From Nitrospina sp. (GTDB lineage: Bacteria; Nitrospinota; Nitrospinia; Nitrospinales; JACRGP01), in the NCBI GenBank assembly GCA_024648695.1, contig JACAVV010000043.1, positions 1 to 35,378 of the forward strand: 35,378 nt of DNA. The letters run 5' to 3'. The notes below the pieces were generated by a model. It was not told the DNA's origin. It made no database searches and saw only the letters and a list, made by a program, of their open reading frames with translations. A program made the translations under genes and the position numbers. How positions within the stretch are numbered: position 1 is the first letter of the stretch; every line of letters begins with the position of its first letter. Shown in pieces: positions 16,997 to 35,100 of this stretch.

Positions 16997-17108
16997 TCTT
17001 TCTTCTCCTGCTTTTTCTATGATTGTGTGGATAATAAAATTTGAAAATGTTGCTTTGAGGAAAACGGTTCAATGGATACTGGAAGATTCAATTGATTGGA
17101 ATGGTCTG

Positions 17109-17801
17109 TCAGGACCCTCCATGATTCTCATCGAAATCCCAATAAGGAACCATAGCCAATTCCCCTGAGGCTAAAGTGAGATTGGGGTCGGAAGCGACCA
17201 AATCCTCAATTTGAGTGGTCAATTTCAATGTGGCTTTTTGAACCGTTTTTGCTGAGGCAACTGAAGGAATCTGGTTAAACAGGTTAATGTAGGTTTGAAC
17301 AAGTTTCTCGGCCGAACCAATTGTAGATTTCACGGAAATGAAATCCAGTTTACGTTTTTCGATTTTTAATGCCTTTTGGGTAAACTCCAGCCAGATTTCT
17401 ACTTTTTCAGCGGCCTTGCCTAACCCTATTAAATGGGATCGGGTCTCATTTAGGGTCATTTTTTTTAACAGGGAGTTTACATAAAAAGCCAAATCATTCA
17501 AAGGGACCCCATTCAAGGTTTCACAAAGATAACTCAGGGTAAAAACCAAATTGTTAATCCTTGTATCCAATTTTAAGGCTGTTGTCGATTCCGGTCTTAA
17601 AGATTTTGATTGTTCAAATCGCGACCAGACTCCGCCAAGGTGAGTTACCTCCGTTTGACCCACCTTTATTGGTGACAACATATTTTTGCATTGCTTGATA
17701 TCTCCCTTTTCCTGACCCCAAATTTCTGCTACCGATCCTGGAAACAGGGAGCAAAGAATAATAATTGAAACAACCAAAGGCCGGAAATAAATGGAGGGCA
17801 T
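17109..17801 (-). CDS. Secreted helical protein of unknown function
   Basis: A 230-residue protein not recognised as any family. The N terminus is a signal peptide (basic start, hydrophobic core at about 8-24, then SVAEIWG). The mature part is predominantly helical with two Cys (KQCKN and YLCETL) that might pair. The C terminus ends with YWDFDENHGGS. It lies 36 bases behind the EVE-domain gene and could be cotranscribed. No ribosome site stands out before the start. Confidence 0.6.
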   Translation of the reverse strand: MPSIYFRPLVVSIIILCSLFPGSVAEIWGQEKGDIKQCKNMLSPIKVGQTEVTHLGGVWSRFEQSKSLRPESTTALKLDTRINNLVFTLSYLCETLNGVPLNDLAFYVNSLLKKMTLNETRSHLIGLGKAAEKVEIWLEFTQKALKIEKRKLDFISVKSTIGSAEKLVQTYINLFNQIPSVASAKTVQKATLKLTTQIEDLVASDPNLTLASGELAMVPYWDFDENHGGS

Positions 17802-17837
17802 TATATTAAACCGCGTTAAATAAAAATGATGGAAAAT

Positions 17838-18260
17838 TCAAACGCCATCCAGGGACGTTTTACTCAATTTAAGGATATGCTTGAATTCTGGTTTGCTCAG
17901 CGGGAGCACGGATAAACGGGTTTGTTTGACCAGAGCGATGTTTTCCAATTTGGGATCCGACTTGATAATTTCCAAAGATACCGGGTTCGCCAGGGCTTTA
18001 ATGGCTTTTAAATCCACTACCACCCAACGATCATCATTCGTTGTTGGGTCTTGATACGATTCCTTGATGACTTGGGCGATGCCTTTGACGGATTTTTCCA
18101 CGACGCTATGATAGAAAAAAACGAAATCACCCTTTTTCATTGCCATCAAATTGTTACGTGCCTGGTAGTTTCTTACTCCATCCCAATAGGTGGTTTTGTC
18201 TTTGACAAATTCGTCCCAACTATATTTAGAAGGCTCCTGTTTGACCAGCCAGAAATTCAA
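17838..18260 (-). CDS. EVE domain-containing protein
   Basis: A protein of about 140 residues that is essentially one EVE (PUA-like) domain: FWLVKQEPSKYSW at the start, YWDGVRNYQARNNLMAMKKGD, FFYHSV and a final LPLSKPEF block. EVE domains bind modified nucleobases in DNA or RNA. The frame can be extended upstream to 18305, but the start is best placed at TTG 18260: GGAG lies exactly 6 bases before it and the protein then begins MNFWLVKQEPS, as in typical family members. Confidence 0.87.
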   Translation of the reverse strand: MNFWLVKQEPSKYSWDEFVKDKTTYWDGVRNYQARNNLMAMKKGDFVFFYHSVVEKSVKGIAQVIKESYQDPTTNDDRWVVVDLKAIKALANPVSLEIIKSDPKLENIALVKQTRLSVLPLSKPEFKHILKLSKTSLDGV

Positions 18261-18638
18261 TGGATACTCCTCACGGAAAATTGTAGAAGTGGAATTATAA
18301 TCCAAATGGTCGCTAATTTCATAATAAAGTAAATATTCCTTCCAATAGGCGGGTAATTTCTTTATATTGCCCTTCAGGAAATCACTCTCCGCTTAAGGTT
18401 CCGAGTGGAAATGACAATGTTACCATTTTACAGTTGCCTCAAAAAATTCAAATTTTGTGTCTGAATTGGCCATTAGCCCCCTTTTATTTGTCCTCCTGAG
18501 GCCTTTGTTGGGATTTTTGGGTCACTCTTTCCTGAAAGTGGCTTTATATTTTGAGGAAGTCCCAAATTCCTCTTGATACAACGCTTAAACCAAAATATAA
18601 TCAAAAACTTCCAAAAAATTATGCTTCTGGGGTCTCAA
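18261..18638. other. Divergent intergenic region between the EVE gene and the aldolase operon
   Basis: No gene recognised. It contains the sigma70-like promoter at 18573-18601. A 6-bp inverted repeat, GAGGAA (18553-18558) and TTCCTC (18567-18572), lies directly before the -35 box and could be an operator or chance. The rest is unremarkable spacer. Confidence 0.5.
18573..18601 (+). promoter_or_regulatory. Near-consensus sigma70-type promoter for the aldolase genes
   Basis: TTGATA (18573-18578) and TATAAT (18596-18601) are separated by exactly 17 bases, giving 5/6 and 6/6 matches to consensus. Transcription would start near 18608. This rules out the long upstream extension of the downstream reading frame and supports translation from ATG 18639. 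Confidence 0.7.
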
Positions 18639-19589
18639 ATGTTTCGAAAGGAAATAAAGGTACTGGATTGCACAATCCGCGATGGCGGGTTGATGAACAA
18701 TCATAAATTCACGGACGATTTTGTCCGAAATGTTTATACTGCTGTAAATCAAGCGGGTGTTGATTATATCGAAATGGGATATAAGGCGGATGAATCTCAA
18801 TTCGATCGATCTGAGTTTGGACCCATGAAATTTTGCACTGAAAATGATCTTAACCGCCTGCTCGGTGATTTGGAGAAAAAGTGTAAAATTTCGGTTATGG
18901 TGGATATTGGCAGAGTGGACCCATCGACCATCGTTCCCAAGGGCGAAAGCCTGGTGGATATGATGCGGGTAGCGAGTTATGTCAAGGATATTGACAAGGC
19001 CATTGATCTCACTAACCAGATCAAGGCCAAAGGCTATGAAACAACTATCAACATCATGGCGGTGTCTCATGCCCGAGAACAGGAGTTGGATGAAGCTCTG
19101 CAACAGATTGAAAATGAAAGTGGAGTCGATGTAGTTTATCTGGTCGATAGTTTTGGCGCTTTGTATTCCGAACAAATTGCCTATATGGCCCAAAAGTACA
19201 AGACCATTTTAAAAAGCCGGGAAGTGGGAATCCATACCCACAACAATCAGCAACTGGCATTTTCTAACACGATTGAGGCGATCATTCAAAACATCAATTA
19301 TCTGGATGCGACCATCTTAGGAATTGGCCGGGCCGCCGGGAATTGTCCTTTGGAATTGCTTCTCGGATTTTTGAAAAATCCTAAATTTGATCTCCGTCCC
19401 ATTTTAGGCGTGTTGGAAACCGAGTTTGTCCGGTTGAAAGAGGAAATTGAATGGGGTTATACCATTCCTTATATGATCACCGGATCGTTGGATATCCATC
19501 CTCGCGCCGCAATGGCCTTGAGAAAATCGGATAAAAAGGACGACTACACCGGCTTTTACAATAAGTTGACGAACGAGGCGAACGTTTAG
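18639..19589 (+). CDS. HMG-CoA lyase-like / DRE-TIM metallolyase-family aldolase
   Basis: About 316 residues from the chosen start. The N terminus LDCTIRDGG carries the family Arg-Asp pair (R14, D15). HTHNN (H199, H201) supplies the divalent-metal ligands, and the C-terminal helix region is intact. Relatives include 4-hydroxy-2-oxovalerate aldolase and 2-isopropylmalate or homocitrate synthases; the short length and lack of a regulatory domain point to an aldolase/lyase. The substrate cannot be read from sequence. The frame extends back to 18573, but that stretch contains the promoter, so ATG 18639 is preferred. A KDPG-aldolase-family gene follows 5 bases later. Confidence 0.82.
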   Translation: MFRKEIKVLDCTIRDGGLMNNHKFTDDFVRNVYTAVNQAGVDYIEMGYKADESQFDRSEFGPMKFCTENDLNRLLGDLEKKCKISVMVDIGRVDPSTIVPKGESLVDMMRVASYVKDIDKAIDLTNQIKAKGYETTINIMAVSHAREQELDEALQQIENESGVDVVYLVDSFGALYSEQIAYMAQKYKTILKSREVGIHTHNNQQLAFSNTIEAIIQNINYLDATILGIGRAAGNCPLELLLGFLKNPKFDLRPILGVLETEFVRLKEEIEWGYTIPYMITGSLDIHPRAAMALRKSDKKDDYTGFYNKLTNEANV

Positions 19590-19594
19590 CCTGT

Positions 19595-20245
19595 ATGGAT
19601 CCAGGCGAATTTTCGCAACGTTTCAAAAGGGCTCCCGTGCTGGGAATCATTCGGGGGATATCTAAAGACCATTTGGATCCCGTTTTGCAATGCTCGAAAA
19701 ATGCCGGCCTTAAGTTCCTGGAAATCACAATGAATACCGAGGCCGCACCAGAGTTAATCCGGGCGGCCCGGCAGGGATATGGTTCAACGGTTTGCATAGG
19801 GGCTGGAACCGTATTATCGATTACGGATGCTCAAACGGCTCTGGATTCCGGTGCACAGTTTCTGGTATCTCCAACCATTAACACCGAGTTGGCAGAATTT
19901 TGTAACGAAAACAAAGTTCCGTATTTCCCTGGTGCGTTCACTCCTACCGAAATAGAGACTGCCTGGTCGCTGGGAGCTTGTATGGTCAAAGTGTTTCCCG
20001 CCTCATTATTGGGTCCACGGTTTTTCAAAGAAATGAAAGGACCCTTCCGCGATATTCCATTGATGGCTGTTGGAGGAGTCCGCGTGGAGAATGTTGCGGA
20101 GTATTTACAATCCGGTGCGAGCGCCCTTGCTTTTGGTGCCTCTGTGTATTCCCTGGATGCGATAAAAAAAGGCTGTTTTGCAGAAATTCAATCAAAAATC
20201 GAAGAAATTCTATTGGAAGTGAACCTGTTTTTTCCTACAATATAA
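19595..20245 (+). CDS. KDPG/KHG aldolase family protein (Eda-like)
   Basis: A 216-residue class I aldolase of usual Eda length. It has GIIRG (R20), E43 in LEITMNT, GAGTV, the Schiff-base Lys K132 in CMVKVFPAS, and the phosphate-binding end PLMAVGGV. The family cleaves 2-keto-3-deoxy-6-phosphogluconate or 4-hydroxy-2-oxoglutarate to pyruvate or glyoxylate products. Being 5 bases behind an HMGL-type aldolase suggests the two act on related 2-oxo acids in one pathway. No Entner-Doudoroff dehydratase (edd) is nearby. Confidence 0.88.
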   Translation: MDPGEFSQRFKRAPVLGIIRGISKDHLDPVLQCSKNAGLKFLEITMNTEAAPELIRAARQGYGSTVCIGAGTVLSITDAQTALDSGAQFLVSPTINTELAEFCNENKVPYFPGAFTPTEIETAWSLGACMVKVFPASLLGPRFFKEMKGPFRDIPLMAVGGVRVENVAEYLQSGASALAFGASVYSLDAIKKGCFAEIQSKIEEILLEVNLFFPTI

Positions 20246-20300
20246 GAATTATATATTGTTATCAAAGTAACTCATTCGTTCCGATTGGAGGGAGCAACAC

Positions 20301-20558
20301 ATGTCATTTGATTTTATGAAAAACCTGATGATTGCAGAAGATGACGAACGTTTTGCCAAGCTCTGCGATACTCTGGAGGATGTGATTCGCGAATTGGATG
20401 AGGATGAAGAAAGGTTCACCGATGTTGAAGTCATGCAGGCCCTGGATTATGTGGGTTTCAACTTGTTTCGCGATTCCTGGGAAGAGTTCAAAAAGATGGA
20501 ACTCTCCAAAGACCTCTATATCAAGGATCCTGAAGACGGTAAAAATCTGATCAATTGA
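20301..20558 (+). CDS. Small acidic protein of unknown function
   Basis: An 85-residue, strongly acidic protein (EDDERF, ELDEDEERF, DPEDG) that is probably helical. It has no Cys, signal peptide or membrane segment. A strong ribosome site (GGAGGGA) precedes the ATG, supporting it as a real gene. It lies 55 bases after the Eda-like gene and could be in the same transcript. Function not recognised. Confidence 0.7.
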   Translation: MSFDFMKNLMIAEDDERFAKLCDTLEDVIRELDEDEERFTDVEVMQALDYVGFNLFRDSWEEFKKMELSKDLYIKDPEDGKNLIN

Positions 20559-20578
20559 TATCGCAAATCTTTATCCAT

Positions 20579-22162
20579 TCAGTTTTGCGACATTTTATCG
20601 AACTCTTCCAACCGGCTCAATAAATGATGCATCTTCTTGTCCAAAGTGTGGATGTGTTTGCCGATTTCCTGGATTTCCTTTTTCTCATTTTTTAAATAGA
20701 TCGATTTGCATTTCTCAAGATGTTGGCCAATGTGTTCGATCATGTCATGAATTTCAGTGCTTTCATGAAATAGGTCTTCCGTTGTTTCCTGAATTTCCAT
20801 GATCATATCTGTATCGAGTGATTTCTTTTGAATATTCTTTTTGATACGTTTGGCTTTATTACGCTGGTAGGTAATGACGAATCCGGACAGCACCAAAAAC
20901 AGTAAGCCTATGGTTGCTAAATCAACTAAAAGGTAGATGTAGGAGCCAAAGAAGCGACCGGTATGAATTTCAGTGAACAGTTTCACGAGATCCATAGTGC
21001 GCTCTTCTCTGGCTTGACCTTCAAGTCCCTGGGAGCCAAGATCCATATGTTTCCACGTCGCTCCGTCTTCCATAGAAACCAGTAGACCCGAATCAGTAGC
21101 CACCCAGTACAATGGGGGGTCACTGGAATACCATTCTGTGGATTTTATTTTTATCGAGTGGGGCAGGGCCGATTCGCTTTCCACGTTGTCTTTGGGATCA
21201 ATGGATAAACCTTTCCACTGGTCACCGCCATTCCTTGTGATTTGAACTCCAAACTCCCAGGACACTATCAAATGTGAGAGGTCCTTGGGATCAACCCAGA
21301 TGGATTCAATTTTCCGCTCTTTGAATGCTTGATCTGCAACCCAGGAAATTCCCCGATTGAAGGATTTGAACAATCCCTGTTCGGAACCCACATAGAGGAA
21401 TTCCGGTTCAGTTTTTAGAGAAACAATTTGGCGAACATCCTTCCCCACTTTTTCCCAAGTTGAGGTCCAGGTTTTCCCCAAATCCTTGCTACGATAGGCG
21501 CCGTTCGCTGTGGCCAGGTAAAGCACATTCGGATTGTTTGCCGATATAGTAATGGCCCGCACATCCAGGGCGGACTCGTAACCCTTTCCGTCGAACCCCT
21601 GTGCCCAGGATTCTCCTTCATCCTCCGAAACGTAGAGTCCCATAGGTGAGGCCGCGAAAATCAATTCCGGGTTTTCCGGGTGAATTAAAATGTCTACGAT
21701 TGGTGCACTAGGTAAACCCGTAGATTCCTCAAACCATTCCAGCCAATGAGCGCCACCGTCTTCGGATTTGAAGATACCCTTTCCGGTTCCCAGGAACAGC
21801 ATTTCCGGGTCCATGGGATGGGGTGCGATGGATCGAATATCGAGATTGAACAAGCCTTCATTTATGGGTGACCAATGTAATCCCAAATCCTCAGACCTGA
21901 AGAGTCCCAGGACGGTACCGGCCAGTAAGACTGGGGAGGGGCCTGGAAGGGATCTTAGGGTTTGAACGGAAAGGCCCGCGCCTTCTACATCGAAATATTT
22001 TTTGGGCAGATATTGTTCGCTGATTTCGATTTTATCCAGTTCCAGTTCTTCCCAGTGCATTAACAACAAACCGGAAATACTGAGGGTGAGGATAAAAATC
22101 GCCGCCAGACTGCCCGTCCAACGATGGAGGCTTCTATTGTTGTGAAAAAACCTGTTTTTCAA
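20579..22162 (-). CDS. PepSY-type membrane protein carrying a seven-Asp-box beta-propeller and a His/Cys helical tail
   Basis: A 527-residue protein. The first membrane helix (about 12-36, [22 protein letters not shown]) matches PepSY-associated transmembrane segments. Residues about 75-385 carry seven Asp-box repeats: [48 protein letters not shown] and SMEDGATW. That is the sialidase/VPS10/Ycf48 propeller pattern. A second membrane helix follows (about 405-430), then a cytoplasmic coiled coil of about 95 residues. The tail is related to the FTR1 tail encoded just upstream. The start overlaps the FTR1 stop by 4 bases, so the products are made together; a role in iron uptake or ferric reduction is inferred from context. 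The catalytic sialidase residues are not expected, since only Asp boxes are visible. Confidence 0.8.
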
Positions 22163-24309
22163 GGCAATTCCCTGGGCCCGGCAGGAAGGTCTCCAGCCAA
22201 GCGGTCGTATTCATCCTGAAGGTGGTCTTCCATATAGCGCACCTGGTTGGATAGCTGGTGGACCTTGTCGTGAATTTCCCGCAAATGATCCGACAATTCT
22301 TTCAAGTCCTCATCGGCGGTGTCTTTAAGAAAAATTTCACAGCGCTTGGCATGATCAGAAATGTGCTCCACCAAATCGTGGACCGCCGATATGTCTTTCC
22401 GAATATGACTGGTTTCCTTTTGCAGTTGTTTAGATTCGATTTCGGGTTTTACTCCAAAGGTATAAATCAGGGCAAAAACGTACGCCGCAACCAGGATCAT
22501 TTGCCCGATGAAAGTCTCCCAAGTCGGGTACATGCCCATCCAGGCAATTTCCGGAACGAACTCGGCAGGGGTCATGGATACCAGGCTCCCCATTTGCAGT
22601 TCATGCAAACCTTTACCCATGAAAGTGAAAGCCATGTAGTAAAGAAGCACACTGGTCACAGCAAAAAACCATTTCACCGGAATGTGTACGCCGAGCCGGT
22701 TGATCATATAATAAACCCCCGCTAAAACCGCACATCCGACCAGAAACCCGGGAATGATTCCGGCGGAGCTTCCCTCGGCATAGGTATAAAGCGCCTTGTA
22801 AAAAAGAACCGTTTCAAATCCTTCACGGTAAACCGACAAAAAGGCGACGGTCGCAAGCGTAAAGGCACTTCCGGTGGTCATGGCTTCGCGCATTTTACCG
22901 GTGATATAGGCCTGCCATTTTTGCGCCTCTATTTTGGTGACCAGCCAGTAACTGACCCAGAACAGGACGACCACCGCAACCATCATGATCCAGCCTTCGA
23001 GTAACTCTTGGCTGGCAGTGCTGATATCCAGAATTTCGTGCAGGATATAGGCAGTTAAAAAACTAGCTAAAATGCCTACAGCCACGCCGGAATAAATCGA
23101 TTTAAGTTTGTCTTCATTGCGCGATTTGACCAGAAAGGTAATCAGGGCGGCGATGATCAATATGGCTTCAAATCCTTCGCGGACAATGATGGCAAGGGAT
23201 TGGAAAAACATGGTCATGAAACCCTGCTTTTGAATCAATACCGCTTCTGCTTCTTCCAGGTTTCCCAGAATGCCGGAATAAATCGATTCAATTTGTTCCA
23301 ACGAAGCTTTTCTTTTGATCTCTGCCCGGTAACGCCCAAAACTTGATTCCAGTAAAAGGCCCAGTTGTTTGTTTTTGTTTGCCAGGCCTCTTTCAATGGT
23401 TTCATAAGCAAGGTACGCGTCAAATGCCTGTTCTGCGGCAGAATCTATCTGCCCCTCTTTAAAAGTGGCCAGGCTTTGTTCGAGCAGGTTACGGGTTTCC
23501 TGAAATACTCCTTTGAAACTCGACCCACCGGAATCTCCATCTGTAGGTTTACCTGCAATTGCAGATACCACTGGAAGCTTAAGGTTTGAATTGGAAAAGG
23601 ATCGAATGTAATAGGTCACGTTCCAGATATCCGTAGTCGACAGGGTATCCGCCCAACCAACCATAGCCGTGCCCCCGATACCGACGCTGATGATCTGAAA
23701 ATTATCGTAAGCCTTGGTTTCCGCATCCCCTGTGAGAGCGGGGTCGGCGAGAACCGCGGGTTTGGGATTCAATTGAAAGGCGAGGGGACCGTCCCCTTTT
23801 CCGCTCAAGCCGTGGCAAATTTTACAATTCGATTCATAGATCAGTTTGCCCTGATCCAAAGACACTGGTTCCAATGGATTGACATCCATCTTGATACCAA
23901 ACTCATTGAGGATATCATTTTGTATTTTTTGGGTTTGAGATTTAACTTCGCCTGGATCGACTTTACTTTTCAAATCGGCGATCAATTTCGTAAACAAAGG
24001 CAAAGTGGAATCCGCTTGACCCGGCTTCGGCGATTGTTTGCTGATGGACTGGTAGCGGTTGTAAGACTCCTTTAGAAAAATCTGGCTTTCCTCGTACTCG
24101 CCATCATTGATGATCTTTCCATTCTGAATTCCTTCATAATATTCCTTCACCACGATATCCATCATCATGATGATCTTTTTCACACTGGATTCAAGATCCT
24201 GCGATTTTACTTCTGCGTAAACGGGAGCCGTCAAAATTGAAACCAATAGAATTAACAATAAAAAAGGAGTTGATTTGATTGTAGAGGGGGGAAAACGATT
24301 AAAAGACAT
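22159..24309 (-). CDS. Cytochrome c-FTR1 fusion, high-affinity iron permease
   Basis: About 716 residues from the chosen start. A signal peptide is followed by a helical periplasmic region. A c-type cytochrome domain follows, with CKICH at about 162-166 and a likely axial Met in GGTAMVGW at about 216. A second helical stretch leads to an FTR1 permease with about seven membrane helices. The two iron-translocation motifs REGFEAIL and REGFETVL are intact. A cytoplasmic coiled-coil tail of about 75 residues carries [13 protein letters not shown]1 imports iron coupled to ferrous oxidation; the fused cytochrome may take the electrons. The frame reaches 24360, but ATG 24309 is preferred because the signal peptide starts there and the Fur box abuts 24360. 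Confidence 0.92.
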
Positions 24310-24365
24310 AGAAATCCATAAAATATTGGTGATGCCGGAAAATAGTGGCAGGGGGCACATTTATT

Positions 24366-24451: not shown

Positions 24452-27400
24452 CTACAGCCAATTATTGATCATGAGGAAAGGCGACCAGAAATAGGGGTGT
24501 TGAAATTCCTTTTGAGCCAGGAGTTTGTTTTGTGCCAAGCGAAGGGCTTCTGCTTTGGAATTTTCTGGGTCCTTGAGTTGACGGTAAAATTCTTCGACCA
24601 ATTGAGCGGTGCCCAAATCACTCACGCTCCACAGACTGCCCATCACACTTCTTGCTCCCGCCTGAATGGCAGAGCCTGCCAGACCAAAGGCCGCCTGGTC
24701 GTCTCCGGCCGCTGTCTGGCAGGCACTCAATACCAGGAGTTCAACGGGAGTTTCACGGAACTTGGTTTTGCCGATTGATTTCTTGAGTCGGTTGATCGAC
24801 ATTTTGCCATCAAATGCCAAAAGAAAATTGCCAAATCCATTGCCTGTGAAACTGCCGTGCGAGGCGATGTGGACAAGAGAAAGGGATCTGTCGTTTGTTA
24901 ATTCCTCTTCAAATCGTTCCAACGTAAAGTTCTGGTCCATCAATACAGAACCTCCGTACAGCTTTTGAATGGATGCCAATTCTTGGGGTACTGCCGCCAA
25001 CTCCGGATAACCTTGAACCGATTCGCTAAGTCCAGCCAAAAGAAGCTTCATCTTGGAGCGCTCAAGTGGTTTGGGATCGATTAAACTAAGACTGGGAGTT
25101 ACCGCCACTGCATATTTCTGAACAATAAACTGTTCCCCATCGTGCAGAGCCGAGAATGGAATGCTATTCAAAGCTTCGTGAGGCAGAAATACCAGAGTGT
25201 GTACACCGGATTTTGCTAACTCTTTGGAATAAGGCCGTATCAGGGCATCGTATAATTTCTGAGATAATTCCAGATATTCGTCTGTGCCTGGATCTTCCAA
25301 CAGGCTCCTGAATCTTTGTATCGCCTGGGTGGTTTCTTCGGCTCCAGCAGGGACGGAATACCTGTGCAAACCGGAAGGCAAATGCACCAGCAACTCCAGT
25401 CGGTCAGGAAGCAGAATAGGATATATCACTGCCGCATCTTTGGCGACTTTATCGAGTGATACCTTATGCGCTTCGTATTCAGCAACACACTCGTCTTTAA
25501 AATAGGCTCGCAATTCAGCGGCTTTTAATTGTTCCACCGTTGACCGGGCTTCCAATAAAAAGGCGTTGATTGTTGTTGGATCAACACTTGCTTCACTGGC
25601 CTGCAACAGAGCATTTACCAGATCAAGATACACCGGCGAAATAGACTGATTGAAATAATGTCTGGGCGAGCCATATCGTGCCAGGCTTTCCTGTCGGGTT
25701 TCGTTGAGGATGTTCACTGCCGCCCGGTAAGAATGGAGTGAGTTTTCTTTTTCGCCCATAGCCCACAGGACGCGTCCTTCCTGCCAACGCCAGAGATAAA
25801 TCATCTCTGGTGCTTCCTCCTGCTCAGCTGAGCGTAGAGCCTGGCGAGTGAGGTAGAGAGCTTCTTCGTATCGATTCCGGTCTTCATACAGTTTGCCAAG
25901 GTTTCCCAAGGCATAGGATCGAGCACGGAATTCCTGCAGGCTTTCGGTTACTTCAATTGCTTTTGCAAGAGATTTATAGGCACCGACATATCCACCCTTG
26001 GTGAATTTGGACGACGTCTGGGCCAATTGCTCGTAGGACTTGGCCAGATGGATCAGAATGTAGGCTTTGTCGATTTGGTCATCCAACTGCAAGGTCCATT
26101 GACGCGCCGCGTCCAGTCTTTGCAGAACCTGTTCGGTGCTTCCGGTCGCAAGAGCCGCTCGCGCCTCGTTCGACACCGCCTTGGCAAAGTTGATCTTTTG
26201 TCCACTCTTTCGCGCAACTTCGGCGCTTTTATGATAGTGGAGCATGGCCTCCTGATATATCCCGCTTTGAACATAGTAGTTTCCCATGCTGTTTAAGGAG
26301 GCTGTTTCCAAATCATAATTGCTGGTTCCCGTGGCGATTTTCATTCCTCGAGTGAGCATGGCCTTTGCCTCTTCACCATTACCCAAGGCGAGATTCGCAT
26401 TTCCTATGGCTACCATCAGAGAAGCCATTTGTTCCTCATCTCCCACCTGTTCAGCGATTTGAAAAGCTAAACCCAGCGTTTCAAGAGACTCAGAATACTT
26501 TCCTAAAGCCTGTTGGGTATGGGCCAGTTGGCGAAGCGTACTGTGGCGTTGCTCCAGATTACCTCTTTGGGCTAACAGCATGGATGCCTGAGCCAGATTC
26601 TCTTCCGCCTGATCAAAATCTCCTTCTCGAAAAGCTTGCAATCCCTTGGCAGTTTCGATACTGGCAACTTCAAACGGTTTGAATTTCTGCTTGTCTGCAG
26701 GGATATCAACCAACTCGACCTGCCCTGAACGAGTTTTGGGGATGTCTATTTCAGGGCTATAAACCATCAGCATTTCTTCAGGAGAAGCAGGAATGCCCCT
26801 GGTTTTAGCTACTTTAAGACCACCACCAATGTTTCCTGCCGATTTTAAAGAGCAACTTTGTCTCAAACGTTGAGACGGATCTATATAGGCGGTTTTCAAA
26901 GCCACCGTCCCCTGCACCGTGTTGCTTTCGGGAGAAGTTACATTTATTTGTCCATCAATTCCAGTTTGCGAAGTCGATTGGATGATACTGTCGGGATTAC
27001 TCAACAAAAAATCGGTTGTGATATTGATGTCCCCGCCATTTCCCCCGATGGCATTGGCTGAAATAGTGCTGTTATCTAGGGAAACAACGTTTGAGTCCAG
27101 GTTGATGTCCCCACCGTTACCCACACCCGCACCCACGTTGGTGCTAATTTGACTATCTTTTAAATGAATAAAGGACCCGGATGATAAATCGATGGTGCCG
27201 CCGAAAGAGTTCGCTGATTCCGTTTTGATTTCGCTACGGGTTAAAAGTATTTCCGAGCCGGGGCCTACTGTTATACTTCCTGCTTCAGCAGGGGATATTA
27301 AACTTGTGCTGGAACTGCTAATTTCTGAATCTTCAAGATTTAACCTGGAAAAATTGGTGATTGAAATAGTTCCTACGTTTCCTTGTGAATCCGAATTCGT

Positions 27401-29998
27401 GGTTATTGAGGCACCTTGTAAATCCAGATTACCACCCAACCCGAAAAGGTTAACATTTCCAGCATCTCCAGTATTGACTCCCCCAACCGACCTTGACGAT
27501 GTCGAAATAGAAGTTCCCTCTTGCAAAGATAAAAAGGAAGTTTGAATATCAATTGTTCCCCCGGTCCCTGTTCCTCTGGTTTCCGCAGTAATACTTGATT
27601 TTAGACCAAATATGGATTCTTCACCTGACAAAACAATTTCATTAGCTTTGATTTTAATATCATCAGCATCGCCGGGTCCAAAAGTAGTTGTGCTTAGACT
27701 TGCGGCATTATTTAATTCGAGATTAATTGCTTCAATTTCGAGGGAACCCCCGTTTCCGGTTCCTTGGCTTTCTGCAGTTATTTGAGAGCCTAACCCGGTA
27801 ATAAAGTTATTTCCCGTCAATAAAATTTCCCCAGCTTTTACATTCAAATCACCGGCATTACCTGTACCTGATGTAGTCGTACTGATGGTGGCTCCATCCT
27901 CTAAGGTAAGGCTTAAGGTCTCAATAACAATAGTTCCACCTTCTCCTGCTCCGGCGGTTTGTGTGCGAAGGGTTGAAGATCCAAATAAATTATTGGAACC
28001 GGACATGGAAATCTCGTTAGCTTTGATTTTGATATCGCCGGAATTTCCTAAGTTTTCTGAGCTTGCATCTATTAAAGCCCCATCATTAAGAATCAGACTA
28101 CTGGTTTCGATGTCAATTGTGCCGCCATTTCCAGATCCTTGCGTTAGGGCATTAAGAGAGGAGCCGATTCCTAAAAATCCTCCTACTCCTGATAGTGAGA
28201 TAAGATCTGCTTTAACCAGAAGATCACCGGCGTCACCAGAACCTAGGGTGCTGGTATTGATAGTAGCCGAATCTTCCAAATTTAGACTTTCGGTTTCAAT
28301 CGCAATGGTGCCACCTTTGCCAGTGGCCGAAGTTTTAGCATCTATAATTGCACCTAATCCAAATGAGCCAGTACCCGATAAGGATATTTCTTTAGCCATT
28401 ATTTTGATATCTCCGGCATTTCCTACTTCGGTACTAGTTCGAATTGCCCCACCATCTTCTAAGCTAAAATTTCCAGTTTCAATTTCAATGGTCCCACCTT
28501 CATTTAAACCTAAGTTCCTAGAATTTATTGAAGACGTAATACCAAGTGCATCGCTACCAGACAAGATAATTTCATTAGCCTGGATCTTAATATCCCCCCC
28601 ATTACCCAAAAAAGCAGTGCTGGTATCAATAAAGGATCCATCGTTTATTTTAAGGCTGTCTAATTTGAGATCAATGATTCCTCCGTTACCGGTACCAGTA
28701 CTTTGGGAAACAATGGAAGCACCCTGTCCATCGGATCTGGGACCAGACAATAAAACTTCACTAGCATTAATAAAAATGTTTCCGGCATTTCCGGTTGATA
28801 AGGTATTAGCGCTGATAAAAGCACCTTCTTCTAATTTAAGGCTAGTTGTATCAAGATTAATTTCCCCTCCATCACGAACTCCTCGGGTTAGAGATTTTAA
28901 AGAAGATGCAAAACCAAATTGATCACTGCCTGTCAAAACTATTTCTCCAGCTTTGATTATAATATTTCCACCATTACCAATATTTGTTGTGCTTGCATCT
29001 ATAAATGCTCCATTATCCAATCTAAGGCTATTTGTTTCGAGGTCTATGGTACCTCCATTTCCAGAACCCAAGGTTTGAGCGGCAATGGAAGATCCGCTTC
29101 CATCGAATCTAATACCGGACAAAGAAATATCATTGGCTTTAATTGTTAAATTACCTGCGTTACCATTATTTGTTGTACTAGATGAAATAAAGGCACCCTT
29201 TTCCAAATTTAGAATGTTAGTCTCAATATCAATATTTCCACCATTACCTGAGCCACCGGCTGTAGATCCTATAAATGACATAAAGCCGAATTGATTTTGA
29301 CCAGACAAAATAATATTTTCTGCTTCAATCAAAATGTTTCCACCGGCTTGTTCTCCTAATGAAGAGGCCGAAATATTTCCCCCGTTTTCAAGAAATACTC
29401 CATTAGCTTTTAAAGAAATTCCATTGGGTAATCCTAAAGAACTTCCATTTAAAGTTATATTTGCGGAAGAAGGACCAAAGAAACCAAATTCCACTGGATT
29501 TGCTGAAGTAAGAATGGGAGGCGTAGAGGACGCATCCAACTGATTTCCGTCTTCAAATATCAGTGAGTCCGTTGCACCCACATTGAAAGAGCCATCGACA
29601 TTGACCTGGGCATTGGGACCAAAGAAGACGCCGTTGGAATTCAATAGCCAGAAATTGGCTCCGGTGATGGACGAGGAGTCGAGCAAGCCGTCGATGTTGG
29701 ATATGTTGGGTCCTGTTACACGGCTGATGACATTGTCTATGGGGCTGATTGCGGTGAAGGTCGCTGATTCGTTGGTCAGGATGTTGAATTCTTCGAAACT
29801 GTGGAACAGGTTGGACCCTGCGAGGGCACCCATATCTTCCGGAATAATATAGTTAGGGCCTGTCGGTTGAATTTCCACACCCGGTCCCACCGTCCCGTCA
29901 CGGATGATCTGGGCCTCGGATGAAACTGCGAAAAGAAAAAACAAAAAAGCTAAGGTTAATATTCTGGAAAATACCCAAACAAAATTATCTCTTTCCAT
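24452..29998 (-). CDS. Two-partner-secretion exoprotein (TpsA) with C-terminal TPR and CHAT protease domains
   Basis: A 1848-residue protein with these parts in order: signal peptide (1 to about 29); TPS haemagglutinin secretion domain (about 30-200) with VISRVTGPNISNIDG and the NPNG-type motif LLNSNGVFFGPNAQ; ten beta-helix repeats of about 62 residues (219 to about 845); degenerate beta-helix to about 1040; an SC-containing passenger-end segment like those in cyanobacterial TpsA proteins; TPR helices (about 1100-1500); and a CHAT caspase-like domain (about 1520-1848). The CHAT dyad is H1714 in HIASHGSF and C1760 in LSACQTAAGD, followed by GARSVMGSLWSV. tpsB ends 14 bases upstream. It should cross the outer membrane through TpsB and present or release a cysteine protease. 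Substrate and activation are unknown. A purine-rich site precedes ATG 29998. Confidence 0.88.
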   Translation of the reverse strand: MERDNFVWVFSRILTLAFLFFLFAVSSEAQIIRDGTVGPGVEIQPTGPNYIIPEDMGALAGSNLFHSFEEFNILTNESATFTAISPIDNVISRVTGPNISNIDGLLDSSSITGANFWLLNSNGVFFGPNAQVNVDGSFNVGATDSLIFEDGNQLDASSTPPILTSANPVEFGFFGPSSANITLNGSSLGLPNGISLKANGVFLENGGNISASSLGEQAGGNILIEAENIILSGQNQFGFMSFIGSTAGGSGNGGNIDIETNILNLEKGAFISSSTTNNGNAGNLTIKANDISLSGIRFDGSGSSIAAQTLGSGNGGTIDLETNSLRLDNGAFIDASTTNIGNGGNIIIKAGEIVLTGSDQFGFASSLKSLTRGVRDGGEINLDTTSLKLEEGAFISANTLSTGNAGNIFINASEVLLSGPRSDGQGASIVSQSTGTGNGGIIDLKLDSLKINDGSFIDTSTAFLGNGGDIKIQANEIILSGSDALGITSSINSRNLGLNEGGTIEIETGNFSLEDGGAIRTSTEVGNAGDIKIMAKEISLSGTGSFGLGAIIDAKTSATGKGGTIAIETESLNLEDSATINTSTLGSGDAGDLLVKADLISLSGVGGFLGIGSSLNALTQGSGNGGTIDIETSSLILNDGALIDASSENLGNSGDIKIKANEISMSGSNNLFGSSTLRTQTAGAGEGGTIVIETLSLTLEDGATISTTTSGTGNAGDLNVKAGEILLTGNNFITGLGSQITAESQGTGNGGSLEIEAINLELNNAASLSTTTFGPGDADDIKIKANEIVLSGEESIFGLKSSITAETRGTGTGGTIDIQTSFLSLQEGTSISTSSRSVGGVNTGDAGNVNLFGLGGNLDLQGASITTNSDSQGNVGTISITNFSRLNLEDSEISSSSTSLISPAEAGSITVGPGSEILLTRSEIKTESANSFGGTIDLSSGSFIHLKDSQISTNVGAGVGNGGDINLDSNVVSLDNSTISANAIGGNGGDINITTDFLLSNPDSIIQSTSQTGIDGQINVTSPESNTVQGTVALKTAYIDPSQRLRQSCSLKSAGNIGGGLKVAKTRGIPASPEEMLMVYSPEIDIPKTRSGQVELVDIPADKQKFKPFEVASIETAKGLQAFREGDFDQAEENLAQASMLLAQRGNLEQRHSTLRQLAHTQQALGKYSESLETLGLAFQIAEQVGDEEQMASLMVAIGNANLALGNGEEAKAMLTRGMKIATGTSNYDLETASLNSMGNYYVQSGIYQEAMLHYHKSAEVARKSGQKINFAKAVSNEARAALATGSTEQVLQRLDAARQWTLQLDDQIDKAYILIHLAKSYEQLAQTSSKFTKGGYVGAYKSLAKAIEVTESLQEFRARSYALGNLGKLYEDRNRYEEALYLTRQALRSAEQEEAPEMIYLWRWQEGRVLWAMGEKENSLHSYRAAVNILNETRQESLARYGSPRHYFNQSISPVYLDLVNALLQASEASVDPTTINAFLLEARSTVEQLKAAELRAYFKDECVAEYEAHKVSLDKVAKDAAVIYPILLPDRLELLVHLPSGLHRYSVPAGAEETTQAIQRFRSLLEDPGTDEYLELSQKLYDALIRPYSKELAKSGVHTLVFLPHEALNSIPFSALHDGEQFIVQKYAVAVTPSLSLIDPKPLERSKMKLLLAGLSESVQGYPELAAVPQELASIQKLYGGSVLMDQNFTLERFEEELTNDRSLSLVHIASHGSFTGNGFGNFLLAFDGKMSINRLKKSIGKTKFRETPVELLVLSACQTAAGDDQAAFGLAGSAIQAGARSVMGSLWSVSDLGTAQLVEEFYRQLKDPENSKAEALRLAQNKLLAQKEFQHPYFWSPFLMINNWL
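27461..29344 (-). repeat. Ten tandem repeats of about 186 bp encoding TpsA beta-helix coils
   Basis: Each unit encodes about 62 residues with the pattern GDIKIKANEI-LSG...S-I-A-T-G-GNGGTIDIET-SL-L-DGA-I-TST--GNA. The ten units are diverged but aligned in phase, and an eleventh (after residue 845) is degenerate. They extend the stalk of the exoprotein. The low-complexity Gly/Asn/Thr coding also creates long meaningless frames on the opposite strand. Confidence 0.85.
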
Positions 29999-30012
29999 GG
30001 CCTTGCTCTCTT

Positions 30013-31731
30013 TTAAAAAACAATGAATGTACCGCTGAAATGAATGCCGTCGTCCTGGGTGTCTCGGTCAGAGGCTTCGATGACTTCTCGGAACTGGTGT
30101 CCCCAATAGACTTCCATTTGCAGTCTTTTATTAAATCCCATACGTACCCCCACTCCGGCACTCAAAAGGGTGTCTTGCCCAGGTGAGAGTTCATCCCTAT
30201 TGTTCCAGGAGTAACCTGCGTCGGAGAAGACCCCAAATTCAATATAGGACCCTCGCTGAATATCCCGCCACACGGGCATACGGATTTCGATTGATCCGGA
30301 GGACCCGTTATCATCGACTAATTGGTTTTCACGGTATCCGCGCACCGAGGCGTGACCACCAACGGGGAATTGTTCCAGACCAAGCATCGGGGAGTCGGTC
30401 ATTTGCGCGTCGCCTCGTACCACCACTTGCAGATTACTCCAGGGAAAGCGTCGGGCGTACTGAATTTGTCCCAGCCAGGAAAAATATTGTCCATCGGGTG
30501 TTTCTCCGCCGTTGACTGTTGCTCCCAGGGCGTCCAGCCCCACACTCATTGTAGAGCGTGCTGAAAAAACCTGATTACGGCCGCGATAAACAAAATCCTG
30601 TCCGAAGCGGATCGCCATGATTTGTGACACCCCGTCGTCCGGTCCTTCGGCGAAACTGAAGGGGTCGCCGAAAATGAAGGAGTCGGTGCGCTTGTGCTCC
30701 CCGGTTACGAACACGGAGAAACTGCTATTGGGTGAGCGATACAGGGGTTGTGTGAGGGTGCCGCCTATGGTGACAGAATTGCTCTCGATATTTAACGCAT
30801 TGAACGGTTCCTCCAGAATCTCTGCCCAGTTTTCCCGGTAGTGAAACTTGAAGGTGGTGTCATAAGAGTTGAGGGGAATACCATACGAGGCATCGATGCT
30901 TTCGAATCCTTCACTCTTTTGCAGGGTGGCGCTGACCCGGTCGCCTAAACCCAAAAGATTGGCGTGGGAAAAAATAAAATGACCACGCACGTTTCCGACG
31001 GTTGGAACCTGGTGGTTGCTGATTCCCATTTCGAAACGATAGGGTTTGGATTCCTTTACGTTGACAGAAAGTCGTGATCCTCCTCTCGTTTCAGTAGGTC
31101 TCAATTGAGCTTCGATCCTTCGGACCCGATCGTCTAGCTGGAGGAGTTGTAGTCTGCGTTCCAGTTGCAGGATATTCAAGGGGCCATCGGAGTCGCGCCT
31201 TAATCGTTTTCGAAAGTAATTGGTCCGAAAGCGCCCGTCAGTTTGCACTTCCAGATCGGTCAAGTTTCCTTCAATGATTTGGTAGGTAAATATTCCATTT
31301 TTAATGTCCTGGTCCGGAATAACAGCTCCGGAATTGATATAGCCCTTATTCAGGTAAGCAAGAGTGAGTTGGTCGCGCAGTTTTTCCAGATCACTCAGGT
31401 AGACATTTTTGTTTGTATAGGGAGCTGTGATTTGGGCAATTTCTTCGTTGGAAATAACGGTGTTGCCCCGAACGCGGATCGTTTGAATGAATATCTGCGC
31501 ACCGCCTCTCAGGCCCTGGGTGTCTTTACCCTTGGGAATGGGTATTTCCGGTAGGACCCGCTCTGGTGGTGCCGATTCAAATTGCGGGAGTTCGGGACGG
31601 ATATCCCCCGGGCGGTCAAACGGTTGGAATTGCGCCCAGGCAACAGGGGAATAGGAGTTAATGCCCAGGATTATTGCCGAAGCATATATAAAACAAATCC
31701 ATATTTTCAGAGGAACAACAGGATCTTCCAT
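30013..31731 (-). CDS. TpsB outer-membrane transporter (ShlB/FhaC/HecB family)
   Basis: About 572 residues: signal peptide (cleavage near AWAQ); a Pro-rich stretch; a POTRA region (IFIQTIRVRGNTVISNEEI, then AYLNKGYINSGAVIPDQDIKNG and IIEG); a second POTRA-like part (RIEAQLRPTETRGGSRLSVNV); and a 16-strand barrel with VRGYRENQ near the conserved inner motif. It ends in FSGTFIVF with the terminal Phe typical of outer-membrane barrels. It exports the TpsA partner encoded 14 bases downstream. ATG 31731 is the likely start: GGTGAGG lies just ahead, while the frame's first codon at 31743 is GTG inside that site. Confidence 0.93.
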   Translation of the reverse strand: MEDPVVPLKIWICFIYASAIILGINSYSPVAWAQFQPFDRPGDIRPELPQFESAPPERVLPEIPIPKGKDTQGLRGGAQIFIQTIRVRGNTVISNEEIAQITAPYTNKNVYLSDLEKLRDQLTLAYLNKGYINSGAVIPDQDIKNGIFTYQIIEGNLTDLEVQTDGRFRTNYFRKRLRRDSDGPLNILQLERRLQLLQLDDRVRRIEAQLRPTETRGGSRLSVNVKESKPYRFEMGISNHQVPTVGNVRGHFIFSHANLLGLGDRVSATLQKSEGFESIDASYGIPLNSYDTTFKFHYRENWAEILEEPFNALNIESNSVTIGGTLTQPLYRSPNSSFSVFVTGEHKRTDSFIFGDPFSFAEGPDDGVSQIMAIRFGQDFVYRGRNQVFSARSTMSVGLDALGATVNGGETPDGQYFSWLGQIQYARRFPWSNLQVVVRGDAQMTDSPMLGLEQFPVGGHASVRGYRENQLVDDNGSSGSIEIRMPVWRDIQRGSYIEFGVFSDAGYSWNNRDELSPGQDTLLSAGVGVRMGFNKRLQMEVYWGHQFREVIEASDRDTQDDGIHFSGTFIVF

Positions 31732-32271: not shown

Positions 32272-35100
32272 TTAAACGATACAAACAGAAAGGACCTGTT
32301 TTAGATCACAATCGCCTTTAAAGACTTTGTAGATTCCATCTTGTTTCAGGGTGGTCATTCCATCCTCTATGGCTTGAGCACGAAGATCTTCTACCAATGA
32401 ATTTTTCATGATCAGGCGTTTCATGTCTGGAGTCCCTTCCAGCAACTCATGCAATCCGGTTCGTCCTGCATAACCTGTGTTATTACAATCTTCACAACCT
32501 ACAGGTTTAAACAGTTTCAGATCGTCTGTAAACTGGATTCCCAGTTTAGGAAAGGTTTCTTCTCCGTACTCTTTTACCAAAATCTGAAATTCTTCCTTGG
32601 TGGGATGGTATTCCGTCTTACATTTTTTACAAAGAGTCCGGACCAAACGCTGGGCGACAATCAATAACATAGCATCCGCGAAATTCAAGGGATTCATTCC
32701 CATATCAAGCAATCGGGTGATGGTTTCAGGTGCCGAGTTGGTATGGAGTGTACTGAATACCATGTGACCGGTCAGTGACGCTTCCAGTCCAATAGAACAG
32801 GTTTCTGAGTCACGCATTTCACCCACCATAATGACATCTGGATCGCCACGTAAAAAAGATCTCATGGCTCGGGCAAAGTCGAGGCCGATTTTGTTCAGCA
32901 TTTGTACCTGCCTCAATCCTTTTTGTGTGATTTCCACAGGGTCTTCTGCGGTCCAGATTTTGCGTTCGGGATTGTTGATGTATCCCAAACAGGAATGCAG
33001 GGTAGTCGTTTTACCGGAACCGGTTGGCCCCACAACCAAAACGAGGCCGTAGGGTTTTTGAATCATCTCCTTACACAACCCTAGATTACGGGTGGAAAAA
33101 TTCATTTTATCCAGAGGGATGGGTTTACTGGCGGCAAGGATACGAAGCACCGCATCTTCATTTCCGCCAACGGTAGGACAGGTGGCAACACGATACTCGA
33201 TCTCTCTTTTGCCATACTTCATTTTGATCTTTCCGTCCTGGGGTAAACGCCGCTCTGCAATATCCAGTTTGGACATGATCTTGATTCTGGAAATGACAGC
33301 CTGCTTGTAAATTGCAGGAATTTCTTCATAGATTCGACAGGCCCCGTCTTTGCGATAACGTACGGTAATGTTGTCTTTACCTAGACCGGGTTCAATATGA
33401 ATATCCGAAACACCTTCATCATAGGCATCAGTTAAAACCTTATTGACCAATTTAACAATGGTGCTATCGGTTTCACTGATGGCGCTGACTTCATCGTCTT
33501 CAGCTTGAGGTAGATCGACCTCTTCCTTGCTTTCTTTTTCATGGCGAAGGGCATCCAAAAGTGAAGACATTTCCTCTGACTTGAACTCTTCGCCTCCCAT
33601 ATCCAGATCGCCACCCATCGCGGTATTCAGGAAGTCCAGAATGTCGACCTTCAATCCAATCTTGAATTCGGTTTTCTTTCTGGGAAAAATCAGCTTGATA
33701 TTCTGAATCTTGTCCTGGTTTGTGGGATCGTTGATCAGAATATGGACGGTATCTTCCTCCATATTCAAAGGAATCCAGAAATTTTTGAGCAGGAAGTTCT
33801 TGTTCAGCCCGGCAAGAATTTGCTGGGGAAGAATCACCGAATCACTGTAGCCGACATAAGGAAGATTATAAAATTGTTCCAGAGATTTCCCTATATCAGC
33901 TCGTTTTACACCAAGGTCTTTCAGCAAGATGGTTTCGATATCCGCTTGAGTCTTTCGGGCTTTGGCTATAGCTTTGGTCAATTCTTCTTCGGTAATGATT
34001 CCATTGTTAATCAAATAACTGAATTTGGTGGGTTTTTGCTGGACAAATTTTGCCTGGTTACTCAGAGCCAAAGCAAGGGTTTCCCCAATGATCTGGGAAT
34101 TTTTTTCATCCAACTGACTAAAAGGTCCATCACCTTTTTTGTTTATAAGCTGAAGCACCCCCATTAATTTGTTGGCATGGATTAACGGACTCACCAGCAT
34201 GGTCTTTGTCGAAATCCCGGCTTTTTTATCCCAGGAACTGTCGAACACCAATTGTGGATGATATTCTTTCAATTCAGCCTGGTCGTTGGCATCGAGAATA
34301 TTGACCATTCTTTGTTCCATAGCCACACAACCGGCGATACTCTTTGTTGAAATGGGCACTCGAATTTCATTAATAGCATTGCCTGTTTTTACTTTGGAAT
34401 ATATTTCGTTTTTTGCAATATCAACAGCATATATGGTAATGAGGGATGCATCGAACAGATCCATAATGGAATCTTTTAATTCCAAAAGGATTTCATCCAC
34501 ATTTTTTGCCGCATGAATGGCGTGGGCAATGGTATGAATTTCTTTTTCTTTAGGAGTGCCTTCTTCCCCAGGACGGGATTCCTCCAGTTTGGCCAATGCG
34601 AGACCGACTACGGGAGAAATTTCGCGTGCGGTTTTCAGGTTTTCATCGGAAAAACTGTTGTCCCCCTGCTTGTTTAGTATTTCCATAACTCCCACAAGTT
34701 TTTTATTAAAGGGGAGCGGAATGAACATGGCCGAACGCGTATTAAAAGAGGTTTGGCCGTCGCGTGAGGATCCTGGGTTTAGTTTGGGATGATACGATGA
34801 AATTTCCGCCTGAGATTGCACATCTTTTATGTTGAGGGCCTTGCCACTTGCGGAAACATAACCGGGAAGCGATTTAGGAGAAATTTCAACTCGAATTTCT
34901 TTGACATCGTCTGATATGAAGTTCCTTGAGAACAGTTGTTTGTTAGCCCGGTCCAGGGCCAACAGGGTGACTGCTTCACAATCGAATAAAGCTTTTAAAT
35001 CTTCAATAAGTGGCGAAATGATTCCATTGACATTCTCGCCAGACTGAAGTTTTGCCCCGATGGTCCTGATATTGGATAATGCGCTTTGAGTGGATGGCAT
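32272..35100 (-). CDS. PilB/GspE-type pilus assembly ATPase with two N-terminal GAF domains
   Basis: A 942-residue protein. It has GAF1 (about 10-170), GAF2 (about 185-348), an MshEN/GspE N-terminal-like domain (about 358-500), an acidic linker and a secretion ATPase (about 540-940). Walker A is GPTGSGKTTT (691-700), the Walker B region is DVIMVGEMRDSET, and the His box is STLHTNSA. A four-Cys zinc site follows (CKKC and CEDC). GAF2 carries N320-K321-x5-F327-x3-D331-E332, matching the NKXnFX3DE pattern of cyclic-nucleotide-binding GAF domains; GAF1 has a shortened version. The MshEN part lacks the usual RLG motifs. It would power type IV pilus extension or type II secretion. No pilC or pilT lies in the window. 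Confidence 0.9.
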   Translation of the reverse strand: MPSTQSALSNIRTIGAKLQSGENVNGIISPLIEDLKALFDCEAVTLLALDRANKQLFSRNFISDDVKEIRVEISPKSLPGYVSASGKALNIKDVQSQAEISSYHPKLNPGSSRDGQTSFNTRSAMFIPLPFNKKLVGVMEILNKQGDNSFSDENLKTAREISPVVGLALAKLEESRPGEEGTPKEKEIHTIAHAIHAAKNVDEILLELKDSIMDLFDASLITIYAVDIAKNEIYSKVKTGNAINEIRVPISTKSIAGCVAMEQRMVNILDANDQAELKEYHPQLVFDSSWDKKAGISTKTMLVSPLIHANKLMGVLQLINKKGDGPFSQLDEKNSQIIGETLALALSNQAKFVQQKPTKFSYLINNGIITEEELTKAIAKARKTQADIETILLKDLGVKRADIGKSLEQFYNLPYVGYSDSVILPQQILAGLNKNFLLKNFWIPLNMEEDTVHILINDPTNQDKIQNIKLIFPRKKTEFKIGLKVDILDFLNTAMGGDLDMGGEEFKSEEMSSLLDALRHEKESKEEVDLPQAEDDEVSAISETDSTIVKLVNKVLTDAYDEGVSDIHIEPGLGKDNITVRYRKDGACRIYEEIPAIYKQAVISRIKIMSKLDIAERRLPQDGKIKMKYGKREIEYRVATCPTVGGNEDAVLRILAASKPIPLDKMNFSTRNLGLCKEMIQKPYGLVLVVGPTGSGKTTTLHSCLGYINNPERKIWTAEDPVEITQKGLRQVQMLNKIGLDFARAMRSFLRGDPDVIMVGEMRDSETCSIGLEASLTGHMVFSTLHTNSAPETITRLLDMGMNPLNFADAMLLIVAQRLVRTLCKKCKTEYHPTKEEFQILVKEYGEETFPKLGIQFTDDLKLFKPVGCEDCNNTGYAGRTGLHELLEGTPDMKRLIMKNSLVEDLRAQAIEDGMTTLKQDGIYKVFKGDCDLKQVLSVCIV

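What the first reader, a model, noticed from the sequence alone, without database searches (positions are those of the whole stretch)
24452..31731. Two-partner secretion system whose exported beta-helix protein ends in a TPR-CHAT caspase-like protease
The sequence shows TpsB followed 14 bases later by a TpsA with signal peptide, TPS domain, ten 62-residue beta-helix repeats, TPR helices and a CHAT domain with an intact H1714/C1760 dyad. CHAT proteases are best known as cytoplasmic effectors in cell-death or CRISPR-linked pathways. Here the domain order predicts a protease displayed or released outside the cell on a stalk. Possible roles are a contact-dependent toxin, self-processing of the passenger, or a surface receptor cleaver. 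TPS-CHAT fusions may already be annotated in cyanobacteria and related genomes, but I know of no assigned function.
Basis: partly seen in the sequence, partly recalled or inferred. Interest (0 to 1): 0.8.

Follow-up and report, generated by a model that had tools for sequence, protein, structure and literature searches.

The report
Secreted filament fused to caspase-like protease
A bacterium makes a long surface filament whose tail is a caspase-like protease, and in many cyanobacteria the same two parts are neighbouring genes, which suggests an undescribed system in which an envelope protease works together with its own secreted filament.

Summary
Window 24452-31731 (-) encodes TpsB and, 14 bases on, an 1848-aa TpsA: signal peptide, TPS domain, about ten 62-residue beta-helix repeats, TPR superhelix, CHAT domain with intact H1714/C1760. 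It is one open frame. The junction recurs in a Myxococcales contig, so it is not an assembly join. It is the genome's only TPS system.

It is not unique. This TPR-CHAT belongs to a clade that in cyanobacteria is usually a separate gene, typically just downstream of a TpsA gene, with its own signal peptide, near TpsB, DUF928 and CHASE2 genes. In four cyanobacterial genomes 43 of 64 CHAT frames of this size lie within 10 kb of a TPS domain, against 7 of 77 other CHATs (shifted control about 3 of 61). Fusion happened at least twice within the clade and again in another CHAT group. The window's copy sits in a non-cyanobacterial clade spanning four phyla, so it has moved horizontally.

So 'outside the cytoplasm' is well supported; 'displayed outside the cell' is not established. 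I favour a periplasmic, TpsB-held protease that processes or regulates its own filament, by analogy with LapG-CdrA. A contact-dependent toxin is unlikely. No paper found describes the association.

The parts
30013..31731 (-). tpsB: outer-membrane transporter (POTRA + ShlB/FhaC-type barrel), signal peptide ending ...SPVAWA
   Evidence: Pfam POTRA_2 68.3 bits, ShlB 107.1 bits; phmmer match to CdiB 6wim E 7.8e-18; only ShlB-type protein in the genome. The listed frame starts at TTG 31743; first ATG at 31731.
24452..29998 (-). tpsA-CHAT fusion gene, 1848 aa
   Evidence: One open frame; only TPS-domain protein of the genome; same junction in L051.
29909..29998 (-). Sec signal peptide, residues 1-30 (MERDNFVWVFSRILTLAFLFFLFAVSSEAQ)
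   Evidence: Read directly from the sequence; not run through a dedicated predictor.
29291..29914 (-). TPS secretion domain, residues 29-236
   Evidence: Pfam PF05860, 84.5 bits; NPNG motif reads NSNG at residue 120.
27622..29341 (-). about ten 62-residue beta-helix-type repeats
   Evidence: Direct repeats at 183-189-nt spacing.
26852..26854 (-). C1049, the single cysteine of the TpsA tail; equivalent to the first of two C-terminal cysteines in unfused relatives
26678..26851 (-). junction and linker (residues 1050-1107); its GIPASPEEML motif matches the C-terminal motif of ordinary cyanobacterial TpsA (GRGGLPxxPxxxL); the terminal cysteine module is absent
   Evidence: Compared with L038, L051 and unfused tails; modelled start is low confidence, pLDDT 27.
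25700..26677 (-). TPR superhelix, residues about 1108-1433
   Evidence: Pfam TPR families; AlphaFold2 helices, mostly pLDDT over 85.
25487..25489 (-). C1504, cysteine between TPR and CHAT, invariant in the clade (41/41)
   Evidence: absent in the other fused CHAT group L141-L143.
24467..25270 (-). CHAT caspase-like protease domain, residues 1577-1844
   Evidence: PF12770, 196.6 bits; fold matches Csx29/Craspase TPR-CHAT and separase.
24857..24859 (-). catalytic histidine H1714 (HIASHGSF)
24719..24721 (-). catalytic cysteine C1760 (LSACQTA)

Best explanation
This is a type Vb (two-partner) secretion system whose filament protein carries an active-looking TPR-CHAT cysteine protease as its C-terminal domain. 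Sec exports the chain, and TpsB threads the TPS domain and beta-helix to the surface. The folded, alpha-helical TPR-CHAT half, which replaces the end of the usual two-cysteine C-terminal tail, is held on the periplasmic side of TpsB. There it works as a built-in, regulated protease that cuts its own filament or a periplasmic partner, controlling release or retention of the filament, much as the periplasmic cysteine protease LapG controls the TpsA adhesin CdrA. In most cyanobacteria the same protease is a separate Sec-exported protein encoded next to the TpsA. Shown here: anatomy, intact conserved dyad, fold, gene association, repeated fusion, horizontal spread. Strongly inferred: location outside the cytoplasm. 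Inferred only: periplasmic rather than surface position, and the filament as substrate.
For: Domains and single frame. Fold and invariant dyad. Unfused relatives have signal peptides: 73/91 by a strict rule against 58/374 background frames and 0/20 DUF1822 plus sigma genes. Association: 43/64 CHAT frames of 830-930 aa lie within 10 kb of a TPS domain against 7/77 other CHATs; 40/61 on chromosomes against 3.3 expected, maximum 10 in 500 circular shifts. Among 55 loci with an unfused TpsA nearby, the nearest TpsA is upstream on the same strand in 40, 34 of them within 1 kb: the same order as the domains in the fusion. Repeated fusion: AU p = 0.003 against one origin of window + L051 + L038, plus L141 and L143 in another CHAT group. 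Two-cysteine tails in 69/73 CHAT-linked and 18/20 unlinked TpsA; window, L051 and L038 keep only the first. Precedent: HMW1/HxuA disulfide anchors (PMC5422565) and CdrA cut near its C-terminus by periplasmic LapG (PMC4694147, PMC11898600).
Against: No activity, substrate or location is shown. The two-cysteine tail is general for this TpsA family, linked to CHAT or not, so it does not by itself tie CHAT to filament release. A 2026 preprint reports that the large C-terminal moiety of FhaB can cross its TpsB (PMC13232309), so periplasmic retention is not assured. DUF928 was not found in this genome (where no control genome rang either) and its two CHASE2 proteins are on other contigs, so any accessory partners of the cyanobacterial loci may be missing here.
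Confidence: 0.42

Rival explanations
1. Fully exported effector protease: the whole chain passes TpsB and the CHAT domain acts at the tip of the stalk or after release on proteins of other cells or the matrix.
For: Same chain as a TPS domain. TpsA proteases exist, e.g. LepA (PMC5422565). The FhaB C-terminal moiety was found outside cells (PMC13232309).
Against: Relatives exported by Sec alone, with no TPS domain, keep the same conserved protease, which suggests it works in the periplasm. A confidently folded 20-helix TPR-CHAT is an unusual cargo for a TpsB pore (inference).
Confidence: 0.22
2. Envelope sensing: the beta-helix senses surface events and the periplasmic CHAT cuts an inner-membrane or periplasmic regulator, relaying a signal inward (sigma factor release or regulated cell death).
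For: CHASE2 proteins (one with a CHAT domain, one with a histidine kinase), DUF1822 and sigma-like genes near many loci. The fold search also finds the transmembrane anti-sigma factor DdvA. Craspase's substrate Csx30 binds RpoE (PMC9729208).
Against: No such partner gene next to the window pair; order-wide FTR1 gene lies downstream. The sigma-like query protein had no Pfam hit. The association could reflect regulation of the locus instead.
Confidence: 0.24
3. Contact-dependent inhibition (CDI) type toxin: the CHAT domain is a toxin delivered into neighbouring cells and neutralised by an immunity protein.
For: TpsB-TpsA gene order; CdiB-like TpsB.
Against: Only 91 bases between tpsA and the next gene, which is an iron-permease gene conserved across the order. 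No PT-VENN-type Pfam domain. The C-terminal half is conserved across phyla, the opposite of polymorphic toxins.
Confidence: 0.04
4. Artefact: chimeric assembly, or a decayed read-through of two genes without function.
For: Single draft genome; among 61 genomes of the order only this one has the fusion.
Against: No stops. A Myxococcales contig carries the same junction. Flanking genes are order-typical, and 16202-24360 is largely colinear with G004. Dyad and signal peptide are intact.
Confidence: 0.03

Closest known systems
Two-partner secretion adhesins with an anchored C-terminus (CdrA-CdrB with LapG; HMW1; HxuA)
   Same: TPS domain, beta-helix, adjacent TpsB; relatives here have two C-terminal cysteines; CdrA is released by a periplasmic cysteine protease (PMC4694147, PMC11898600)
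   Different: Here the protease is a CHAT (caspase fold) domain, not LapG, and is fused to the filament or encoded next door; [quoted passage not shown]
TPR-CHAT protease Csx29 / Craspase (type III-E CRISPR)
   Same: TPR followed by CHAT, His-Cys dyad, best fold match
   Different: Craspase is cytoplasmic and RNA-activated; this one has a secretion signal and a filament in front
DdvA, Myxococcus transmembrane anti-sigma factor (PDB 8rot, 8rw5)
   Same: Fold match over the TPR-CHAT model at a similar level to Craspase
   Different: Membrane anti-sigma factor, no TPS domain known; whether its CHAT-like part is active was not checked
CHAT domain-containing protein of Acaryochloris marina MBIC10699 plasmid pREC3 (WP_261892134.1)
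   Same: TPS + TPR + CHAT in one 1756-aa chain, same clade
   Different: Independent fusion; DUF928 gene upstream; no TpsB found within the 10 kb on each side

Membership tests
Two-partner (type Vb) secretion system | Exoprotein with signal peptide and N-terminal TPS domain | tested here: met
Two-partner (type Vb) secretion system | Cognate POTRA + barrel transporter encoded alongside | tested here: met
   14-base gap
Two-partner (type Vb) secretion system | NPNG motif in TPS domain | tested here: inconclusive
   Reads NSNG at residue 120
Two-partner (type Vb) secretion system | Secretion through TpsB | not testable with these tools
   Needs experiment
TPR-CHAT protease | TPR array followed by CHAT domain, caspase/separase fold | tested here: met
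TPR-CHAT protease | Conserved His-Cys dyad | tested here: met
   41/41 in A2
TPR-CHAT protease | Proteolytic activity | not testable with these tools
   Needs experiment
CDI / polymorphic toxin system | Immunity gene directly downstream | tested here: not met
   91-base gap, then a conserved iron-permease gene
CDI / polymorphic toxin system | Pretoxin (PT-VENN) region and variable C-terminus | tested here: not met
   No such Pfam hit; C-terminus conserved across phyla
LapG-CdrA type release system | LapG-family protease | tested here: not met
   Protease domain is CHAT; works-like analogy only
LapG-CdrA type release system | Two-cysteine C-terminal anchor in TpsA | tested here: inconclusive
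   Present in relatives (69/73, 18/20); fused window TpsA keeps one, C1049; a disulfide was not tested

The most novel reading that the evidence does not exclude
A widespread, horizontally moving envelope system, not found in the literature searched, in which a caspase/separase-like TPR-CHAT protease, fused to or encoded beside a two-partner-secreted filament, controls that filament from the periplasm, often near CHASE2 and DUF928 genes. It would be a CHAT protease paired with a secretion pathway rather than with cytoplasmic death or CRISPR.
Probability: 0.4. Interest if true: 0.8.

Novelty: new variant of a known kind. Interest (0 to 1): 0.62.

Why it matters
CHAT proteases are studied as cytoplasmic executors (Craspase, gasdermin operons, separase kin). 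Here a large clade of them appears to work outside the cytoplasm with type Vb filaments. Proteases that process TpsA filaments have been described as lying outside TPS operons; these loci offer a candidate inside them, sometimes in the same chain, which makes the question directly testable in tractable cyanobacteria.

Tried and rejected
CDI reading: rejected for lack of an immunity gene and of a variable tip. L055 was first labelled fused (tree) because of a long high-GC frame; its N-terminal part is a spurious frame and it is unfused with a TpsB beside it. Hypothesis that the two-cysteine TpsA tail is specific to CHAT-linked loci: rejected, since 18/20 unlinked TpsA have it too. Hypothesis that tail cysteine C1049 pairs with C1504: not testable, because the fold tool returns no distances. 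DUF928 model (pLDDT 84): an Ig-like sandwich plus helices, with weak matches to MtxA and carbohydrate-binding modules; it gave no clear function. Sequence searches of the PDB with the CHAT or TPS part alone gave nothing. No paper joining 'CHAT domain' with two-partner secretion, hemagglutinin or CHASE2; broader combined searches listed none either. The library holds only open-licence papers. Searches were failed requests.

Full report
Check of the observation. The minus-strand genes at 30013-31731 (tpsB) and 24452-29998 (tpsA-CHAT) are as described, 14 bases apart. Pfam finds POTRA_2 and ShlB in the first, and TPS, TPR and CHAT in the second, all well above cut-off. The repeats have 62-residue spacing. 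The dyad H1714/C1760 is present. The genome (4.2 Mb, 56 contigs) has one TPS domain, one ShlB protein and three CHAT proteins, so this TpsB is the evident partner.

Not an artefact. The frame has no stop. L051, a Myxococcales contig, carries the TPS and TPR-CHAT parts in one frame with a homologous junction. The downstream cytochrome c-FTR1 gene has 50-66% relatives in nearly every relative searched, and the stretch 16202-24360 is largely colinear in G004 (all but 17109-17801), which has no tpsA-CHAT there. So the pair is probably an island that entered beside a resident gene; among 61 genomes of the order only this one has the fusion.

Structure. AlphaFold2 on a 41-sequence alignment gives pLDDT 87 and pTM 0.85. 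The top PDB matches are Csx29/Craspase TPR-CHAT, then separase; DdvA, a Myxococcus transmembrane anti-sigma factor, also matches. H and C of the dyad are invariant in all 41 sequences.

Relatives. tblastn of plasmids showed TPS-CHAT and TPR-CHAT genes in cyanobacteria. In loci from plasmids and from a scan of 84,980 genomes, most TPR-CHAT relatives are separate genes beside TPS, TpsB, DUF928, CHASE2, DUF1822 and sigma-like genes. Of 37 loci with at least 8 kb on both sides, 27 have a TPS domain, 30 DUF928, 28 CHASE2, and 36 at least one of the family. Some plasmid loci were chosen because TPS hits lay on the same record, so a control was run on four whole cyanobacterial genomes: 43 of 64 CHAT frames of 830-930 aa lie within 10 kb of a TPS domain, 7 of 77 other CHATs do, and circular shifts give 3.3 of 61 on average, at most 10. 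The length class was chosen after seeing the loci. In 40 of 55 loci the nearest TpsA is upstream on the same strand, 34 of them within 1 kb: the gene order equals the domain order of the fusion.

Fusion and transfer. Same-frame fusions: the window, L051, Acaryochloris pREC3 (L038), and in another CHAT group L141 and L143; L142 is also in one frame by Pfam. One origin for window, L051 and L038 is rejected (AU p = 0.003). The window falls in a non-cyanobacterial clade with Myxococcota, Pseudomonadota and Verrucomicrobiota members (support 99; 89 in the smaller tree). In the larger tree this clade is nested among cyanobacteria; in the smaller one it is a sister group, so the donor direction is open.

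Compartment. Unfused TPR-CHAT relatives carry signal peptides by a home-made strict rule in 73 of 91 cases, against 58 of 374 background frames and none of 20 DUF1822 and sigma-like genes. Together with the fusion to a TPS domain this makes a location outside the cytoplasm likely. Without a TPS domain the unfused forms should stop in the periplasm, so the shared compartment is probably the periplasm.

Tail cysteines. Ordinary TpsA proteins of this family have two cysteines at the C-terminus, about 100 residues and about 4 residues from the end: 69 of 73 CHAT-linked and 18 of 20 unlinked. HMW1 and HxuA use a C-terminal disulfide anchor in the TpsB pore (PMC5422565), and CdrA has a presumed cysteine hook and is released by periplasmic LapG (PMC11898600, PMC4694147). 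The fusions window, L051 and L038 keep only the first cysteine and have TPR-CHAT where the tail would end; the TPR-CHAT clade has an invariant extra cysteine, C1504 here. Whether these pair is unknown.

Mechanism. The simplest account is a filament whose TPR-CHAT half stays behind TpsB as anchor and regulated protease, acting on the filament or a periplasmic partner. Full export remains possible; the FhaB C-terminal moiety has been reported outside cells (PMC13232309). A signalling role is suggested by the CHASE2 neighbours, one carrying CHAT and one a histidine kinase, and by the DdvA fold match. CDI is unlikely.

Novelty. The parts are known kinds, and some fusions are annotated generically as CHAT domain-containing proteins. 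The systematic association of a CHAT clade with two-partner secretion was not found in the papers searched, with the limit that only open-licence papers are held.

Noticed in passing
L004:2717-10861 (own genome, contig C2): A 2714-aa protein with signal peptide, TPR arrays, a degenerate and an intact CHAT domain; frames of about 2600-2800 aa with CHAT matches recur through much of the order, so a second, conserved exported CHAT protein seems likely.
   Followed up: partly
window 22159-24360 and 20579-22162: A cytochrome c-FTR1 iron permease fusion followed by a PepSY-TM protein with BNR/sortilin-type repeats, conserved as a pair in several relatives of the order.
   Followed up: partly
window 32272-35100: PilB/GspE-like ATPase with two N-terminal GAF domains and an MshEN domain.
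   Followed up: no
L038:15569-20600 (Acaryochloris pREC3): Downstream of the TPS-CHAT gene lie two genes annotated as toxin-activating lysine-acyltransferases and a calcium-binding protein gene.
   Followed up: no
L101:3418-6039: CHASE2 and DUF928 regions in one frame in a Rhodospirillales contig beside a TPR-CHAT gene, which supports a link between the two.
   Followed up: no
L053:13523-14254 and relatives (alignment A3): DUF928 proteins have two nearly invariant cysteines and a predicted Ig-like sandwich plus helices; likely exported.
   Followed up: partly
G061:C1:6976374-7006801: Cluster of about a dozen tandem TPS-domain genes of about 830 aa in Calothrix brevissima NIES-22; a similar cluster lies in G064:C1:2837757-2875899.
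   Followed up: no
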